Of a stretch of 64,000 nt of DNA, positions 15,076 through 57,514 are shown one piece after another. The stretch lies in assembly GCF_004118855.1 (NCBI RefSeq), contig NZ_PDKF01000002.1:124001-188000 (forward strand), read 5' to 3'. The notes under the pieces are model-generated. The model did no database searches and was not told the origin of the DNA. It was given only the letters and a program-made list of their open reading frames with translations. The position numbers and the translations under genes are program-made. The stretch's first letter is position 1. Every line of letters starts with the position of its first letter. The DNA is from Arcobacter sp. CECT 8983 (GTDB taxonomy: Bacteria; Campylobacterota; Campylobacteria; Campylobacterales; Arcobacteraceae).

Positions 15076-15729
15076 TTGCTACAACAAGATTTATTTGTAA
15101 AAAAAATTATGCATGAAGTAAATACACCTATTTCAATAATCTCTTTAAATACCGACTTAATAGAACAACAATATGGACCTTCAAAACAAATTGAAACAAT
15201 AAAAGCTTCAGTAAAAACTTTATCTTCTATATATGGAGACCTTTCATACAAAATAAAAAAACAATCAAGGGAATATAAAGTAACAAAAATAAATCTTTTA
15301 GAGTTTATTAGTTCAAGGGTATTATTCTTTGATGAGTTAGCAAATACAAAAGATATCCATATTAATTTAGAGTATAGCCATGAACTTTATATTTTAATGA
15401 ATGAATACGAGTTTGAAAGAGTAATAGATAATACTTTAAGTAATGCAATTAAATACAGTAAAGCTTCAAATGAAATAAATATTTTCTTTGGAAAAGAAGA
15501 GGGCGAAACAATTATTTTTGTGGAAGATTTTGGAATTGGTATAGAAGATACTACAAAAGTTTTTGATGCTTATTATCAACAATCAAATAAAAAGTTAGGT
15601 TTAGGTTTAGGTCTTAATATAGTAAAAGAGATTTGTGATAAATATAATATCGATATTGAAATAAAGAGCAAAAAATCAGTGGGTACAAAGTTTATTTTTA
15701 ATATTGGTGCTATAGTAAAGGAAGATTGA
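15076..15729 (+). CDS. 3' fragment: histidine kinase domain as currently translated
   Basis: 217 residues when read from TTG at 15076, with no convincing ribosome site there. It contains the H-box (HEVNTPISI near residue 13), an N-box (NTLSNAIKYSK) and G-boxes. The natural start is in the receiver upstream, so this is the displaced second half of the split gene rather than an independent gene. Confidence 0.55.
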   Translation: MLQQDLFVKKIMHEVNTPISIISLNTDLIEQQYGPSKQIETIKASVKTLSSIYGDLSYKIKKQSREYKVTKINLLEFISSRVLFFDELANTKDIHINLEYSHELYILMNEYEFERVIDNTLSNAIKYSKASNEINIFFGKEEGETIIFVEDFGIGIEDTTKVFDAYYQQSNKKLGLGLGLNIVKEICDKYNIDIEIKSKKSVGTKFIFNIGAIVKED

Positions 15730-51814: not shown

Positions 51815-51838
51815 ATATTAAAGTATAGATTTAGAATC

Positions 51839-51868
51839 AATAAAAGAATTGTTTAACTTTTATTTTAA
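51839..51868 (+). terminator. Weak terminator-like hairpin after the Phd-like gene
   Basis: AATAAAAG (51839-51846) and CTTTTATT (51857-51864) with a 10-base loop, followed by TT. All-AT apart from one pair, so low stability. Confidence 0.35.
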
Positions 51869-51946
51869 GAAAGAAATTACTATTTAGGATTTTAATGCAC
51901 TCTAAATACAATTTGGTTAAAATTAGCTTTTTTAAAGGGTTTTATA

Positions 51947-53023
51947 TTGAAATATAATTGTATTGATTTTTTTTGCGGATGTGGTGGTTTAAGTTTAGGT
52001 TTTAAACAAGCTGGGTTTAACATAATTATGGGAATTGATTCTGATGAAAATGCCATAAAAACATATAATAAGAATTTTAATAATGTTGGCTATAGACTTG
52101 ATGTTTTAGATGTTAATGGTAAAGAAATTTTAAAAAAACTTCCAAAAGATACAAAAGTAGATGTACTAATTGGTGGTCCTCCTTGTCAAGGATTTTCAGC
52201 TGCAAATCAATGGACAAAAGATAATGACGATGATAGAAATAAGTTGGTTTTATATTATGCCAAACATATCGAATACTTAGAACCAAAAATGTTTTTAGTT
52301 GAAAATGTGAAAGGAATGCTAGCCCCGTCAAAAGTTCATATAAAAGATCAAATTTTAAAAATATTTGATAAAATTGGTTACACTATACATGGTCCAGAAA
52401 TACTAAATGCCGCAGATTATTTAGTGCCACAAAAAAGAGAAAGAGTATTTTTTATTGGAACAAAGAAAGGTTACAACTTTAAATTCCCAGAAAAAAAAGA
52501 CATTAAATATACTGTAAAAGATGCTATTTCTGATTTATATATTTTTGAAGATAAACAAGATGATGAACCAATTAAACATAAATTGAAAACTGAAAGTGTT
52601 TATCAAAAGTTAATAAGAGAAAATTCTGAAATTGTATATAATCATCATCCAAAACTTCCTGCTGAAATTACACAACTTAAAATTAGTCATGTACCTCAAG
52701 GTGGTAATTGGAAAGATATACCACTAGATGTAATAGGGAATAATAGAAGTAATAGACATTCTAGTGCATATAAAAGATTAAGTGAAAAAGAACCTTCAAT
52801 AACTATAGATACAGGCAATGCTCATTCAAACTATTTTCATCCTCTATTTAATAGAATACCTTCTGTAAGAGAAGCTGCTAGACTACAATCATTCCCTGAT
52901 ACTTTTATTTTTGAAGGACCGAGGGGTAGTCAATATAGGCAAGTTGGAAATGCAGTTCCTCCCCTATTATCAAAAGCTATCGCTGAAGAATTTATGAAAT
53001 CATTAGGGAATTACAATGAATAA
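51947..53023 (+). CDS. DNA (cytosine-5) methyltransferase 1 of a LlaJI-like system
   Basis: 358 residues. Motif I DFFCGCGGLSLGFKQAG (7-23), catalytic motif IV GGPPCQGFS with Cys80, motif VI VENVKGM, VIII QKRERVFFIG, IX REAARLQSFPD and X QYRQVGNAVPP are all present. Target recognition lies around 185-290. The start is TTG 51947 with AAAGGG eight bases upstream. It overlaps the second methyltransferase by 8 bases. Two methyltransferases in one operon usually mean an asymmetric target with one enzyme per strand. Confidence 0.93.
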   Translation: MKYNCIDFFCGCGGLSLGFKQAGFNIIMGIDSDENAIKTYNKNFNNVGYRLDVLDVNGKEILKKLPKDTKVDVLIGGPPCQGFSAANQWTKDNDDDRNKLVLYYAKHIEYLEPKMFLVENVKGMLAPSKVHIKDQILKIFDKIGYTIHGPEILNAADYLVPQKRERVFFIGTKKGYNFKFPEKKDIKYTVKDAISDLYIFEDKQDDEPIKHKLKTESVYQKLIRENSEIVYNHHPKLPAEITQLKISHVPQGGNWKDIPLDVIGNNRSNRHSSAYKRLSEKEPSITIDTGNAHSNYFHPLFNRIPSVREAARLQSFPDTFIFEGPRGSQYRQVGNAVPPLLSKAIAEEFMKSLGNYNE

Positions 53024-54122
53024 AATTGATTTATTTTGTGGATGTGGTGGATTAAGTTTAGGGTTTAAACAAGCTGGATTTAATAATTTATTTTCAATTG
53101 ATTTTTGGCCTGATGCAATTGAAACTTATAATCATAATATGCCAAATTCAAATGCATATTGTGAATGTCTTGATGAAGATATAGTGGAAAAATTAGATAA
53201 ATATTACAATGGAGAAGAAATACATACAATAATTGGAGGACCACCTTGTCAAGGATTCTCAACTGTTGGGACTAATAGGTTAGGGAAAAGAGATGTTGAA
53301 GACCCAAGAAATTACTTATATCAACACTTTTTAAAATTTGTTAAACATCATAGACCTTATTGCGTTTTAATTGAAAATGTAAAAGGTATGAAAACTTTAG
53401 ATAAAGGTAGATACTTAAATCATATAATTTCTGAAATAAAAGAAATGGGTTATAACGTAAAATATGAGATTTTAAATGCATCAGAATATGGAGTACCTCA
53501 AAGTAGATATAGACTCTTTATTGTTGGTTATTTGATGGATAATTTTGAATTCCCAAAGCCTGTAGATTATAAAGTTACAACTAGTGAAGCTATCTCTGAC
53601 TTACCAAGTTTAGATGTATATTCAGATTTAAAAGATTGTCCAACCAGTTTTGTATATTCTAAGAAGTTAACTGATTATCAAGTCCTTTTAAAAGGAAAAT
53701 CAAAACTAATTTTTAATCACGAACCTACAAATCATACTGAACAAACAAAAGATATAATATCAAAAATTAAAGATGGTGGAAGAATAACAGATTTACCAGA
53801 AGAATATTGGAATATTAGAAAATATAACAAGTCTTTTCAAAGAATGAACAGTTGTGAACCATCACATACAATAGATACAGGTCACAGAAATTACTTTCAT
53901 TATAAAGAAAATAGAGTACCTTCTGTGAGAGAATGTGCAAGAATACAATCTTTTCCTGATAATTTTATTTTTTTAAAATCTAAAACTAGTCAATATAAAC
54001 AAGTAGGAAATGCTGTACCTCCAATATTAGCAAATAAATTGGCTATTCAAATCAAAAAATATATTGAACTTGAAGATATTGAGAAATTGAGAGAAAAAAG
54101 AAAAAAACTGATTAAAGGTTAA
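53016..54122 (+). CDS. DNA (cytosine-5) methyltransferase 2 of a LlaJI-like system
   Basis: 368 residues. Motif I IDLFCGCGGLSLGFKQAG at the very N-terminus, Cys78 in GGPPCQGFS, ENVKGM, PQSRYRLFIVG, RECARIQSFPDNF and QYKQVGNAVPPI. It is clearly related to the first methyltransferase, sharing the core motifs, but its target-recognition stretch differs. It follows with 8 bases of overlap and is 2 bases from the McrB-like gene. Confidence 0.93.
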   Translation: MNKIDLFCGCGGLSLGFKQAGFNNLFSIDFWPDAIETYNHNMPNSNAYCECLDEDIVEKLDKYYNGEEIHTIIGGPPCQGFSTVGTNRLGKRDVEDPRNYLYQHFLKFVKHHRPYCVLIENVKGMKTLDKGRYLNHIISEIKEMGYNVKYEILNASEYGVPQSRYRLFIVGYLMDNFEFPKPVDYKVTTSEAISDLPSLDVYSDLKDCPTSFVYSKKLTDYQVLLKGKSKLIFNHEPTNHTEQTKDIISKIKDGGRITDLPEEYWNIRKYNKSFQRMNSCEPSHTIDTGHRNYFHYKENRVPSVRECARIQSFPDNFIFLKSKTSQYKQVGNAVPPILANKLAIQIKKYIELEDIEKLREKRKKLIKG

Positions 54123-54124
54123 AT

Positions 54125-56125
54125 ATGTTAAAAAAATATAAAGTAGAAAAAGAAACAGATTTTGTAATTAATTTAAGTAAATATGATGTTTTAAAATACA
54201 TTTTAAAACAATACTTATCAAAATTTTTCAATGAATTAGATAATATAAACAATCAAGAATTAATAAGTCAAAAAACAATTCTATTAGACGAATTAATAAA
54301 AGACAATAAAGATGATTATTTAGAATTTGAAATTGCAGATAAATATTATTTTCTACTTAATGTTTATAAATTTGATTATTTTGATAATTTAATAACTTAT
54401 AGTAAAGAAATTTTAGGAATAACTGTAAAAGAGGATGAAGAAAGTACAGAAAAACTTAATAATATTAAAAAAAATGTATCTTTAAACCAAATATTTTTTG
54501 GACCTCCAGGTACTGGAAAAACATATAATGTTGTTAATGAAAGTTTAAAAATTCTTGGTGAAGATTCTTCTAATTTATCAAATGTAGAAAAATTTGACAA
54601 ATTATATAGTTTAAATCCAAAGTTACTGAATGATGATAAGTTAAAACCTGGCAAAAAAATTTATAGAAATTTATCTTATCCTATTTCAACTATTTTAAAA
54701 ATCTTTGATAAAAATAATACTGTATCAATGACTAAAGAAGAAATAATTGAGTCTGCTATGAATGATTATCATTTAAGTTGGAGCGGACCATCAACTATAA
54801 GTCAAAACACAAGACCACTTTTACATTTTAATTTATTAGAAAAAAATAATAACTCGTTTGAATTGACAGACAAAGGGAAAGAGTTTTTATCTGAATATAA
54901 AACTATAAATTTTTCTAATGAAATGATTACTTCTTTAAAAAACTACATAGTATCAAGTCTAAGAAATACCACTTTAAACGATATAAACTTAGTTAAAAAT
55001 ATGATTTTATGTACATTAAGATGGTTTTATGAAGATAAAATCATTAGTGATGCTTCAAATACAATTAAATTACTTAAGTATTATAACTATGAAAATATGA
55101 GTTATGGTTATATTTTTCCATATTTAATGGAATTAAACCTAATTGAAAAAAAAGATACTAATTTTTCTATAACTAACTATGGAGAAGAACTTGTAGAAAG
55201 TTTAACTATTTTAAAAGATATAGATGATGGAAAAGAAAACAAACAAATTAAGTTTAATAGATTAAATGAAATTGGGAAAATAGAATTTGTTACATTTCAT
55301 CAAAGCTTTTCTTATGAAGAATTTATTGAAGGAATTAGACCTGAAGTAGTAAAAACTAGTGATGGGAAAAATGAAATTACATATAATGTAAAAAATGGTA
55401 TTTTCAAAAATATATCAAATGCTGCAATAAAAAATCCTGATGAAAATTTTGTTCTAATAATAGATGAGATTAATAGAGGAAATATTTCAAATATCTTTGG
55501 TGAACTGATTACACTTTTGGAAAACACAAAAAGAAAAGGTAATAAAGATGCATTGAGTATAAAGCTACCTTATTCTAATGAAATATTTAGTGTACCTAAT
55601 AATTTATATGTTATTGCTACAATGAATACTGTAGATAGGTCAATTGGTCTTATAGATAATGCTTTAAGAAGAAGGTTTACATTTATTGAATATCCACCAT
55701 TAAGTAAGCTAATCACTTCTATTGATGGAATTGATTTAATTGAGTTTTTCACTACTTTAAATAAGAGAATAAGTTTTTTATTAGATGATAATCATAAATT
55801 AGGTCACGCATATTTTATGTCAATAAAAAATGAAAAAGATTTAAATATATTATTGAAAGATAAAATTATTCCTTTACTTCAAGAATATTTCTATGATGAA
55901 TGGGACAAGATTGCACTTGTATTTGCAGATAATGATGCGTGGGGGAAAAAAGAGGAAGAAAAAATTATTCAAAAAAACTCAGCTACTGATGTCAATGAAC
56001 TATTTGGAGAAAGTGATTTAAATGGATATGAAGATAAGATTGTTTATCAAGTCAATGAAAATTTACTTAAAGCAAATTTATCTTTAGATATTTTAAAATT
56101 AATTTATGAGAAACCAACTAGATGA
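54125..56125 (+). CDS. McrB-like AAA+ GTPase, restriction subunit
   Basis: 666 residues. An N-terminal region of 120 residues without recognised motif precedes Walker A GPPGTGKT (126-133). An insert of about 230 residues, with winged-helix-like stretches ending in restriction-family repeats (LTDKGKEFLSEY, ITNYGEELVES), splits the motor. McrB marks follow: EFVTFHQSFSYEEFIEG, Walker B FVLIIDEINRGNIS, and the MNTADRS-type guanine-recognition motif ATMNTVDRS, then ALRRRF. It should move DNA by GTP hydrolysis with the McrC-like partner, overlapping by 4 bases (ATGA). Confidence 0.9.
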   Translation: MLKKYKVEKETDFVINLSKYDVLKYILKQYLSKFFNELDNINNQELISQKTILLDELIKDNKDDYLEFEIADKYYFLLNVYKFDYFDNLITYSKEILGITVKEDEESTEKLNNIKKNVSLNQIFFGPPGTGKTYNVVNESLKILGEDSSNLSNVEKFDKLYSLNPKLLNDDKLKPGKKIYRNLSYPISTILKIFDKNNTVSMTKEEIIESAMNDYHLSWSGPSTISQNTRPLLHFNLLEKNNNSFELTDKGKEFLSEYKTINFSNEMITSLKNYIVSSLRNTTLNDINLVKNMILCTLRWFYEDKIISDASNTIKLLKYYNYENMSYGYIFPYLMELNLIEKKDTNFSITNYGEELVESLTILKDIDDGKENKQIKFNRLNEIGKIEFVTFHQSFSYEEFIEGIRPEVVKTSDGKNEITYNVKNGIFKNISNAAIKNPDENFVLIIDEINRGNISNIFGELITLLENTKRKGNKDALSIKLPYSNEIFSVPNNLYVIATMNTVDRSIGLIDNALRRRFTFIEYPPLSKLITSIDGIDLIEFFTTLNKRISFLLDDNHKLGHAYFMSIKNEKDLNILLKDKIIPLLQEYFYDEWDKIALVFADNDAWGKKEEEKIIQKNSATDVNELFGESDLNGYEDKIVYQVNENLLKANLSLDILKLIYEKPTR

Positions 56126-57429
56126 AATATCCAAAAAAAGTTTGTGAATTTGGATATATAAGAAATATAAAGGCATATCCTAATGCTACTGACACTTTTA
56201 ATGAGATATTTTTAAATGATGATGCATTTGAAGAATTAATTTCTTTTATAGAAACTAATTCTGCACTCAATGGAGATATTGACAAAGCATTTTCTATTTA
56301 TAGAAAAAGTGGTAAACAATACATACAAGTTAAAAACTATGTTGGAATAATTGAAACCAAAAATAAAACTGTTATTGAGATACTCCCAAAAATTTATTTA
56401 TCAAATGATAAAGATGAGATTAAAAAGACTAAAGATATTTTTCTGAAAATGTTGAAAGAGTTAAAAAATTCACCATTTATTTCAATTAGTGATGCTGACC
56501 TTCAAACAAAAAAAGATTTTCCTATGTTAGAAATATTTATTTCTTCATTTTTAATTGAATGTGAAAGACTGATAAAATACTTGAAATTAAACTATATTAA
56601 AAAATCTGAAAATTTAAAATTTATCAAAGGGAAAATAGAAATAACAAATCAAATAAAACATAATTCAATAAATAAAAGTAATTTTTTTGTTAATTATGAT
56701 AAATATGACTTAAATATCCCACAAAATAAATTAATAGTTTCAACTTTATATAAAATTATTAATATATCTATTTCTCATAAAAATATTTCAAAAGCTTCAA
56801 AACTATTAAAGAATCTACCTTCTATTGAAACTTCTAAAAATATTACTAGAGACTTTCAATTATCATTAAATTCTAATAGATTATTTAAATCATATGAAAA
56901 AGCATTAAATTGGGCAGAAGTATTTTTATTAAATAAATCATTTACAAATTTTTCTGGAGATAGTATTAATCAAGCTATACTTTATCCAATGGAAAGAATT
57001 TTTGAAGATTATATATGTTCATTATTAAAGAAATTTACAATAGGAAATACCATTAAACTTCAAGATAAATCTTATTACTTAGTTGACAAACATAAAAACA
57101 AAGGAAAATTTTTACTTAAACCTGATGCTATATTATCAAAAAAAGAAAGTTTAATTATATTTGATACAAAATGGAAATTACTGAATTCAAAAAGCAATTC
57201 TAAAAACTACAATATAAAATCTGCTGATATGTACCAATTATATGCATATGGAAAAAAATATTCTTTAAATTCTCAAATAGAACCAAAATTAAAACTTATC
57301 TATCCTAAAAATATAAATTTTATAGATAAACTTGATAATTTTATTTATGACGGGGATTTAGTATTAGAAGTAATACCTTTTGATTTAGAAAGAAATGAAA
57401 AAGAACAAATACTTTCATTAATTCATTAA
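56122..57429 (+). CDS. McrC-like PD-(D/E)xK nuclease subunit
   Basis: 435 residues. The C-terminal nuclease core is visible as LLKPDAILSKKESLIIFDTKWK (Asp, Asp, Lys), and ADMYQLYAYGKKY is typical of McrC. The N-terminal half (VKNYVGIIETKNKTVIEILPKIYL) is also McrC-like. It cuts DNA with the McrB-like motor encoded just before it. A hairpin terminator follows. Composition is even more AT-rich than the neighbouring core genes, consistent with horizontal transfer. Confidence 0.88.
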   Translation: MKYPKKVCEFGYIRNIKAYPNATDTFNEIFLNDDAFEELISFIETNSALNGDIDKAFSIYRKSGKQYIQVKNYVGIIETKNKTVIEILPKIYLSNDKDEIKKTKDIFLKMLKELKNSPFISISDADLQTKKDFPMLEIFISSFLIECERLIKYLKLNYIKKSENLKFIKGKIEITNQIKHNSINKSNFFVNYDKYDLNIPQNKLIVSTLYKIINISISHKNISKASKLLKNLPSIETSKNITRDFQLSLNSNRLFKSYEKALNWAEVFLLNKSFTNFSGDSINQAILYPMERIFEDYICSLLKKFTIGNTIKLQDKSYYLVDKHKNKGKFLLKPDAILSKKESLIIFDTKWKLLNSKSNSKNYNIKSADMYQLYAYGKKYSLNSQIEPKLKLIYPKNINFIDKLDNFIYDGDLVLEVIPFDLERNEKEQILSLIH

Positions 57430-57489
57430 TATCTTTGATTATATGTTTGAGTAAAAGAATTGATACTTATATAAGTTCTTAAAAGTCTT

Positions 57490-57514
57490 AAACTAGTGAT
57501 ACCTCACTAGTTTT
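57490..57514. terminator. Terminator at the end of the restriction operon
   Basis: A perfect 10-base stem (AAACTAGTGA at 57490-57499, TCACTAGTTT at 57504-57513) with a four-base loop and a T4 run on the plus strand. It abuts the stop of the convergent TRAP protein gene. Confidence 0.75.

What the first reader, a model, noticed from the sequence alone, without database searches (positions are those of the whole stretch)
51947..57429. LlaJI/BsuMI-like restriction-modification operon: two C5-methyltransferases plus McrB-like and McrC-like subunits
Four genes overlap or nearly touch: two related cytosine-5 methyltransferases, a GTPase with McrB motifs (GPPGTGKT, MNTVDRS) and an McrC-like PD-(D/E)xK nuclease. 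Classical McrBC cuts methylated DNA and would be incompatible with resident m5C unless the specificity is reversed. LlaJI of Lactococcus pairs the same four components to cut unmethylated DNA. The McrB-like protein carries a large insert between Walker A and the GTPase core that could hold the target reader. The target is unknown.
Basis: partly seen in the sequence, partly recalled or inferred. Interest (0 to 1): 0.72.

Follow-up and report, generated by a model that had tools for sequence, protein, structure and literature searches.

The report
Restriction system with reader inside motor
Four neighbouring genes most likely form a bacterial defence system that marks its own DNA with two methylating enzymes and uses a GTP-driven motor plus a nuclease to cut unmarked foreign DNA, with the part that probably reads the target buried inside the motor instead of attached to its end.

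Summary
At 51947-57429 two C5-cytosine methyltransferases (M1, M2), an McrB-type GTPase and an McrC-type nuclease form one tight operon. A same-genus relative lacks this block (51816-57513), so it is an acquired cassette. It is not a LlaJI member: its nuclease is PF10117, LlaJI.R2 is PF09563, with no blastp match. The large McrB insert is real (about 240 residues between the Walker A helix and the TFHQS strand) and carries winged-helix signatures. One SAR116 alphaproteobacterium contig (L106) has the same set: orthologous M1 and M2, McrC, and an McrB with a homologous insert but no N-terminal domain, which points to the insert as target reader. There both methyltransferase target domains are more conserved (56-57%) than the catalytic halves (43-44%). 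Related methyltransferase pairs occur elsewhere with three other restriction modules. Target and cleavage could not be tested. Verdict: new variant of a known kind.

The parts
51816..57513 (.). Acquired block: absent from a same-genus relative (L216), where 101 bp take its place
   Evidence: flanks 88% and 91% identical, breaks at 51815/51816 and 57513/57514
51947..53023 (+). M1, C5-cytosine DNA methyltransferase, 358 aa (TTG start)
   Evidence: PF00145 4e-73; orthologue in L106 49%
52487..52846 (+). M1 target-recognition region, residues 181-300 (borders set by eye)
   Evidence: 56% identical to the L106 orthologue against 43% in the N-terminal catalytic half
53016..54122 (+). M2, C5-cytosine DNA methyltransferase, 368 aa
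   Evidence: PF00145 1e-75; orthologue in L106 51%
53550..53906 (+). M2 target-recognition region, residues 179-297 (borders set by eye)
   Evidence: 57% against 44% in the N-terminal half
54125..56125 (+). McrB-like AAA+ GTPase, 666 aa
   Evidence: AAA_5 5e-14; PDB McrB 6ut3 7e-54; Foldseek 6ut5 1e-21
54125..54478 (+). N-terminal 118 residues, no family found, no counterpart in the L106 relative
54500..54523 (+). Walker A GPPGTGKT (residues 126-133)
54545..55270 (+). Insert between Walker A helix and TFHQS strand (residues 141-382): proposed target reader
54734..54895 (+). First predicted winged helix of the insert (residues 204-257)
   Evidence: HTH_45 2e-8 for the protein, two stretches, best at 232-262; helix-strand-strand order in a low-confidence model
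55052..55219 (+). Second predicted winged helix of the insert (residues 310-365)
   Evidence: the halves resemble each other: reached by 1 of 1000 shuffles, 3 of 1000 with other borders. Its strands are missing in the full-length model
55625..55636 (+). McrB signature NxxD (NTVD, residues 501-504)
56122..57429 (+). McrC-like PD-(D/E)xK nuclease subunit, 435 aa
   Evidence: PF10117 3e-78; L106 orthologue 42%

Best explanation
A self-contained restriction-modification cassette. M1 and M2, which have different target-recognition domains, methylate cytosines of one target, most simply one strand each of an asymmetric site. The McrB-like protein forms a GTP-driven AAA+ ring that carries the McrC-like nuclease. 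A reader module of probably two winged helices, inserted in the ring's own core between the Walker A helix and the next strand, recognises the unmethylated target on incoming DNA. GTP hydrolysis then drives translocation, and McrC cuts both strands. Shown here: gene content, order, motifs, families, insert position, the matching second set in L106, the empty site.
For: Operon with overlapping or abutting genes. L106 repeats the set with orthologous M1 and M2 (49% and 51%), McrC (42%) and McrB (39%), although there the MTase genes are transcribed away from the McrBC genes. In L106 only ten residues precede Walker A, so the homologous insert is the only large extra domain (insert similarity z 8.7, 0 of 1000 shuffles). 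Target domains exceed the catalytic halves by 13-14 points for M1 with M1 and M2 with M2 of L106, and fall below them crosswise. The block is absent in a same-genus relative. M1/M2-type pairs recur with other McrBC- or LlaJI-type modules, as expected of modification enzymes that serve restriction. LlaJI, the worked example, restricts unmodified DNA with R1 as the specificity subunit (PMC1459862, parts 1-3 of 6 read). Passages of PMC11779793 report that deleting both nuclease-side genes of a LlaJI-like four-gene operon in Clostridium cellulovorans raised conjugation tenfold for plasmid lacking the host methylation.
Against: No methylome or cleavage data. The insert's fold is not established: its models have pLDDT near 40, HTH_45 is found in the window protein but not in L106, and the L106 halves do not repeat detectably (55 of 1000 shuffles reach the score). 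Only two proteins with this insert were found, in capped scans. In the core tree L108, which lacks the insert, sits nearer the window protein than L106 does, though weakly (89/40). A profile with our N terminus ran on upstream of the L106 start through eight stop codons, but a direct tblastn of that N terminus against 400 bases there gave nothing. Five plasmid McrBC loci picked from the best McrC hits (H81, H83, H85-H87, of 119 records) have no C5-MTase in the fetched stretch; the Marinomonas one sits beside a Type I system. The unassigned 118-residue N terminus could also touch DNA. Small positive differences in the target-domain test (+1 to +4) also occur for MTases outside the pairs, so only the L106 and L237 values stand out.
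Confidence: 0.7

Rival explanations
1. A methyl-dependent Type IV McrBC that merely sits beside, or polices, a pair of MTases.
For: McrC is PF10117 and McrB is nearest to McrB structures. In the survey 7 of 94 McrB rows have a C5-MTase in the fetched stretch, 4 of the 29 with a 135-162 spacing, so most surveyed relatives do without.
Against: Overlapping genes; the four orthologues together in L106 in another gene order; three C5-MTases in this genome, one in an NgoPII-type pair; no PF12102 (MrcB_N) or other known modified-base reader in the McrB at E 1.
Confidence: 0.12
2. Right system, wrong reader: the target is read by the N-terminal 118 residues or by McrC, and the insert is structural (ring assembly or McrC docking). 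Not exclusive with the other rivals.
For: E. coli McrB reads DNA from the N terminus (PMC11090510 passages); LlaJI.R1 is thought to (PMC1459862; PMC12707154 passage). The insert fold is not proven. Inserts not detectably related to ours sit at the same place in 29 other McrBs (10 of them as a profile).
Against: L106 has no N-terminal domain, and its McrC is of like size and family.
Confidence: 0.25
3. M1 and M2 act together on a palindromic or two-part site, not one strand each of an asymmetric site. Not exclusive with the other rivals.
For: BsuMI uses two MTases for a palindrome (recalled, from no call).
Against: Target domains of M1 and M2 differ (37%) and stay distinct in own, L106, L233, L234, L235 and L237, as two half-specificities would.
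Confidence: 0.25

Closest known systems
LlaJI (Lactococcus plasmid pNP40, NC_010901.1)
   Same: Two C5-MTases, an McrB-like GTPase, a separate nuclease subunit, same gene order
   Different: R2 is PF09563 with no blastp match to this McrC; R1 core 31%; R1's extra domain precedes Walker A and no insert follows it. A review passage (PMC12707154) says LlaJI reads its site by a B3 domain
BsuMI / LlaI three-subunit type
   Same: Short McrB-like subunits LlaIB and BsuMIB named as R1.LlaJI homologues (PMC1459862)
   Different: Their restriction cassettes have three ORFs (same source); here two, and McrB is 666 aa. Their sequences were not compared
L106, SAR116 cluster alphaproteobacterium AG-343-O03
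   Same: Orthologous M1, M2, McrB with homologous insert, McrC
   Different: MTases transcribed away from McrBC; no N-terminal domain
E. coli / Thermococcus McrBC (Type IV)
   Same: AAA+ GTPase core and a nuclease subunit that matches McrC
   Different: E. coli McrB has an N-terminal methylcytosine reader (PMC11090510 passage); no cognate MTases (recalled)
GTPase-domain inserts and MTase-associated McrB of Bell et al. 2024 (PMC11090510, passages read)
   Same: Reports that GTPase domains often contain insertions likely encoding specificity domains, and MTase association
   Different: Defers the MTase-associated groups to a later paper; the passages seen describe no such case in detail

Membership tests
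LlaJI family | Two C5-MTases plus McrB-like and nuclease genes in one operon | tested here: met
LlaJI family | Nuclease subunit of PF09563 (RE_LlaJI) | tested here: not met
   PF10117 is the only Pfam hit of own McrC at E 1; LlaJI.R2 hits PF09563; no blastp match at 1e-3
LlaJI family | Large domain before Walker A, no insert after it | tested here: not met
   LlaJI.R1 has about 270 residues before Walker A and VFHPDYTY about 29 residues after it (sequence); own has 125 before and a spacing of 264
LlaJI family | Restricts unmodified DNA | not testable with these tools
   needs strains or proteins
BsuMI/LlaI three-subunit type | Three restriction ORFs and short McrB | tested here: not met
   two restriction ORFs, none between M2 and McrB (2 bp); McrB 666 aa
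Type IV McrBC | AAA+ GTPase with Walker A, DEINRG and NxxD, plus PF10117 partner | tested here: met
Type IV McrBC | Recognisable modified-base reader (DUF3578/MrcB_N, EVE, YTH) | tested here: not met
   no such Pfam hit at E 1; an unknown reader of modified DNA is not excluded
Type IV McrBC | No cognate MTase | tested here: not met
   two in the operon; orthologous pair in L106
Type IV McrBC | Cuts modified DNA | not testable with these tools
   needs strains or proteins
C5-cytosine DNA methyltransferase | PF00145 over nearly the full length with PCQ and ENV motifs | tested here: met
   GGPPCQG and ENVKG read

The most novel reading that the evidence does not exclude
The target reader of a methylation-guarded McrBC-type restriction system lies inside the AAA+ motor, spliced between the Walker A helix and the next strand, so that binding of the unmethylated site could directly set GTP hydrolysis of the same subunit; and one kind of MTase pair has been matched in evolution with readers in different places (inserted, separate gene, N-terminal) and with both McrBC- and LlaJI-type motors.
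Probability: 0.5. Interest if true: 0.65.

Novelty: new variant of a known kind. Interest (0 to 1): 0.5.

Why it matters
McrBC-type motors are best known for cutting modified DNA; characterised systems that turn them to unmodified DNA are few (recalled). This one offers a compact test of how specificity is plugged into the motor: M1/M2-type pairs appear with four kinds of restriction module, so related sites may be read by different modules.

Tried and rejected
Idea that the insert is a swallowed copy of the separate ~260-residue protein that lies between M2 and the GTPase gene in L233-L235 (and a 246-residue one in L246): no sequence support (pairwise z at most 1.45; HMM score 0.7, below the best shuffles; hhalign E 0.006, probability 6%, over one helix-wing stretch). 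Idea that the insert is related to the commoner inserts (spacing 135-162): hhalign probability 0.1 against 10 of 29; pairwise, 29 tested, the best being L143 (z 3.8, 0 of 200 shuffles) and L173 (z 3.2, 2 of 200), against z 8.7 for L106; a distant tie to L143 is not excluded.

The insert in further genomes: own phylum 3 of 397, the window's own plus two weak hits, neither in an McrB gene; phylum of L106 1 of 398, L106's own genome; phylum of L107 1 of 395, E 9e-4, overlapping the start of a LysR-type regulator by my reading; phylum of L110 0 of 398, for which the tool warns that an empty answer shows nothing. Plasmids none; genome contigs by exact 8-residue patterns none (it did not return L106, so this search is insensitive); viral contigs none.

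Structure: two jobs; the insert is too uncertain in both for a fold search of that part; the full model was searched once. Core tree: own, L106 and L108 group at 96/50, with L108 next to the window protein at 89/40; no starred set holds the window protein; L233 and L234 McrB lie far off. Target by genome-wide motif avoidance: not tried, because the cassette looks recent. BsuMI sequences: none fetched; Foldseek row 22 (9a5m, YdjA-YdiS) names them. Organism name: not told by the tools; the gene content looks like Campylobacterota to me, untested (one search did not help). In print: the listings of searches showed no paper that I recognised as describing this arrangement; five papers were opened (PMC1459862 parts 1-3 of 6; passages of PMC11779793, PMC7680126, PMC11090510, PMC12707154).
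Full report
The observation. One search lists four + strand ORFs: M1 51947-53023 (TTG start), M2 53016-54122, McrB-like 54125-56125, McrC-like 56122-57429. They overlap or nearly touch. Pfam gives PF00145 for both MTases, AAA_5 for the GTPase and PF10117 (3e-78) for the last. M1 and M2 are 42% identical. Expected motifs are present: PPCQ and ENV in both MTases; GPPGTGKT, LIIDEINRGN and MNTVD in the McrB; KPD...FDTK in the McrC (read by eye).

An acquired cassette. In a same-genus relative (G010, locus L216) the gene before M1 is directly followed by the DctP gene that lies after McrC in the window. Similarity (88% and 91%) stops after 51815 and resumes at 57514; 101 bp replace the block. A second relative (G011, L228) shows the same neighbour order, not aligned base by base; in the other same-genus loci the far neighbour differs or was not in the fetched stretch. 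Of 16 same-genus genomes, the window's own among them, five match the McrB query; in the other four (G002, G003, G010, G011) the match lies in the core only. The four genes are poorer in G+C (24%) than the window (28%).

The McrB insert. From Walker A to TFHQS there are 264 residues. In the McrB-like ORFs with both motifs the figure is 23-162, except the window's own copies and L106 (293). In 29 of them it is 135-162, so this place takes inserts often; others are lengthened further on, between TFHQS and DEINRG. The window protein matches HTH_45 (2e-8, two stretches), with the best stretch inside the insert. The insert's halves resemble each other: 1 of 1000 shuffles reaches the score, 3 of 1000 with other borders. 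Predicted secondary structure is helices, two strands and a helix, twice, at low confidence; the second pair of strands is missing in the full-length model. The AAA+ core is modelled well and matches McrB structures (Foldseek 1e-21). So: a core that is surely McrB, and an insert that is probably, not certainly, two winged helices.

The second member. A capped genome-contig scan put one contig first: L106, a SAR116 cluster alphaproteobacterium assembly. It encodes two C5-MTases, an McrB and an McrC. Best partners: M1 with L106Mb 49%, M2 with L106Ma 51%, McrC 42%, McrB 39%. The insert aligns to ours (27% over 235 residues; z 8.7, 0 of 1000 shuffles); the 29 other inserts at this place reach at most z 3.8 (L143, 0 of 200 shuffles). 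HTH_45 is not found in L106 and its halves do not repeat detectably. Its Walker A begins at residue 11; an ATG with a purine-rich run before it starts the gene, and tblastn of our N terminus against 400 bases around that start found nothing, although a profile match ran on upstream through eight stops. Thus in L106 the insert is the only large module besides the core.

Target domains. Between own and L106 the target-recognition regions are 56% (M1) and 57% (M2) identical, the N-terminal catalytic halves 43% and 44%. In the wider table, M1-type enzymes of L106, L233, L234, L235 and L237 exceed their catalytic identity in the target domain when compared with own M1 (+3 to +14) and fall below it against own M2 (-9 to -18). 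M2-type enzymes give -2 to +13 against own M2 and -2 to -9 against own M1. MTases outside these pairs also give small positive values (PhotoM1 +1, L231 +4, L240 +3, L244 +2 and L246 +2 against own M2; L244 +2 against own M1), so only the large values carry weight: +14 and +13 (L106), +8 and +12 (L237). I infer that M1 and M2 are a pair of two specificities and that own and L106 probably share their target; for the rest it is open. The region borders were set by eye.

Other restriction modules with such pairs. A capped viral-contig scan with M1 and annotation by phmmer and Pfam show: L233 and L234, M1+M2 + a ~260-residue protein + short plain McrB + McrC-like ORF (PF10117 tested in L233 only); L235, M1+M2 + the same kind of protein + LlaJI-type R1 + PF09563 nuclease; L237, M1+M2 + McrB with about 440 residues before Walker A + McrC (PF10117). 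L246 has an M2-type enzyme, a 246-residue relative of the protein and a LlaJI.R1-like GTPase. Insert and separate protein exclude each other in the loci seen (own and L106 with insert; L233, L234, L235 with the protein; L237 with neither). I tested whether they are homologous and found no sequence support. The McrB cores of L233 and L234 are far from ours in the tree; the tree itself is weak around the window protein and puts L108, which lacks the insert, beside it (89/40).

Comparison with LlaJI. The pNP40 record (L211) gave the real proteins. LlaJI.R1 matches our McrB at 31% over 178 residues. LlaJI.R2 gives no match to our McrC at 1e-3 and belongs to PF09563. MTases match at 23-29%. The layout is the same; the parts are not. 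PMC1459862 (parts 1-3 of 6 read) reports that LlaJI acts on unmethylated DNA in vivo, that R1 binds the site, and that no endonuclease or GTPase activity was found in vitro.

Why not Type IV. The operon and its L106 counterpart tie the nuclease to the MTases. The genome also has an NgoPII-type REase next to a third C5-MTase (PF09521 5e-91). If that MTase marks GGCC (specificity recalled), a classical RmC-reading McrBC would attack its own chromosome. None of this proves cutting of unmodified DNA.

What is new. Bell et al. 2024 (PMC11090510; passages seen) already report that McrB GTPase domains often hold insertions that likely encode specificity domains, and that many are MTase-associated, deferring details. 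So neither the insert idea nor the association is new in general. What I did not find described in the papers searched is this set: an M1/M2 pair tied to an McrB whose reader candidate lies after Walker A and whose relative does without an N-terminal domain. I rate it a new variant of a known kind.

Noticed in passing
L092 4940-10069, L133 1166-6269, L030 728-5843: Five-gene sets: N4/N6-type MTase (Pfam-tested in L092 only), C5-MTase, ~250-residue protein (no Pfam hit in L092, the only one tested), McrB of 422-423 residues with no N-terminal domain and a shorter insert after Walker A, McrC
   Followed up: partly
L235 946-6417: Own-type M1/M2 pair combined with a LlaJI-type R1 and PF09563 nuclease plus a ~260-residue extra protein
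   Followed up: partly
L236 7953-10139: One 728-residue protein matching both M1 and M2 strongly, possibly a fused MTase pair, followed by a LlaJI.R1-like GTPase
   Followed up: no
L018 5762-9181 (p275D); L019 5779-9166: M1-like MTases paired with a second, more distant C5-MTase and quite different neighbours: an NgoFVII-type PLD/B3 endonuclease (Pfam-tested), or a protein annotated DUF3883
   Followed up: partly
L212 5004-6943 (G000:C8): NgoPII-type restriction-modification pair elsewhere in the window's own genome
   Followed up: partly
window 54125-54478 against 15076-15729: The McrB N-terminal 118 residues weakly match another window ORF (phmmer 7e-5), perhaps by composition
   Followed up: no
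L020 4727-6988, L021 4680-6935: McrBs with about 170 extra residues between TFHQS and DEINRG, a second insertion place in the same core; no Pfam family found there
   Followed up: no
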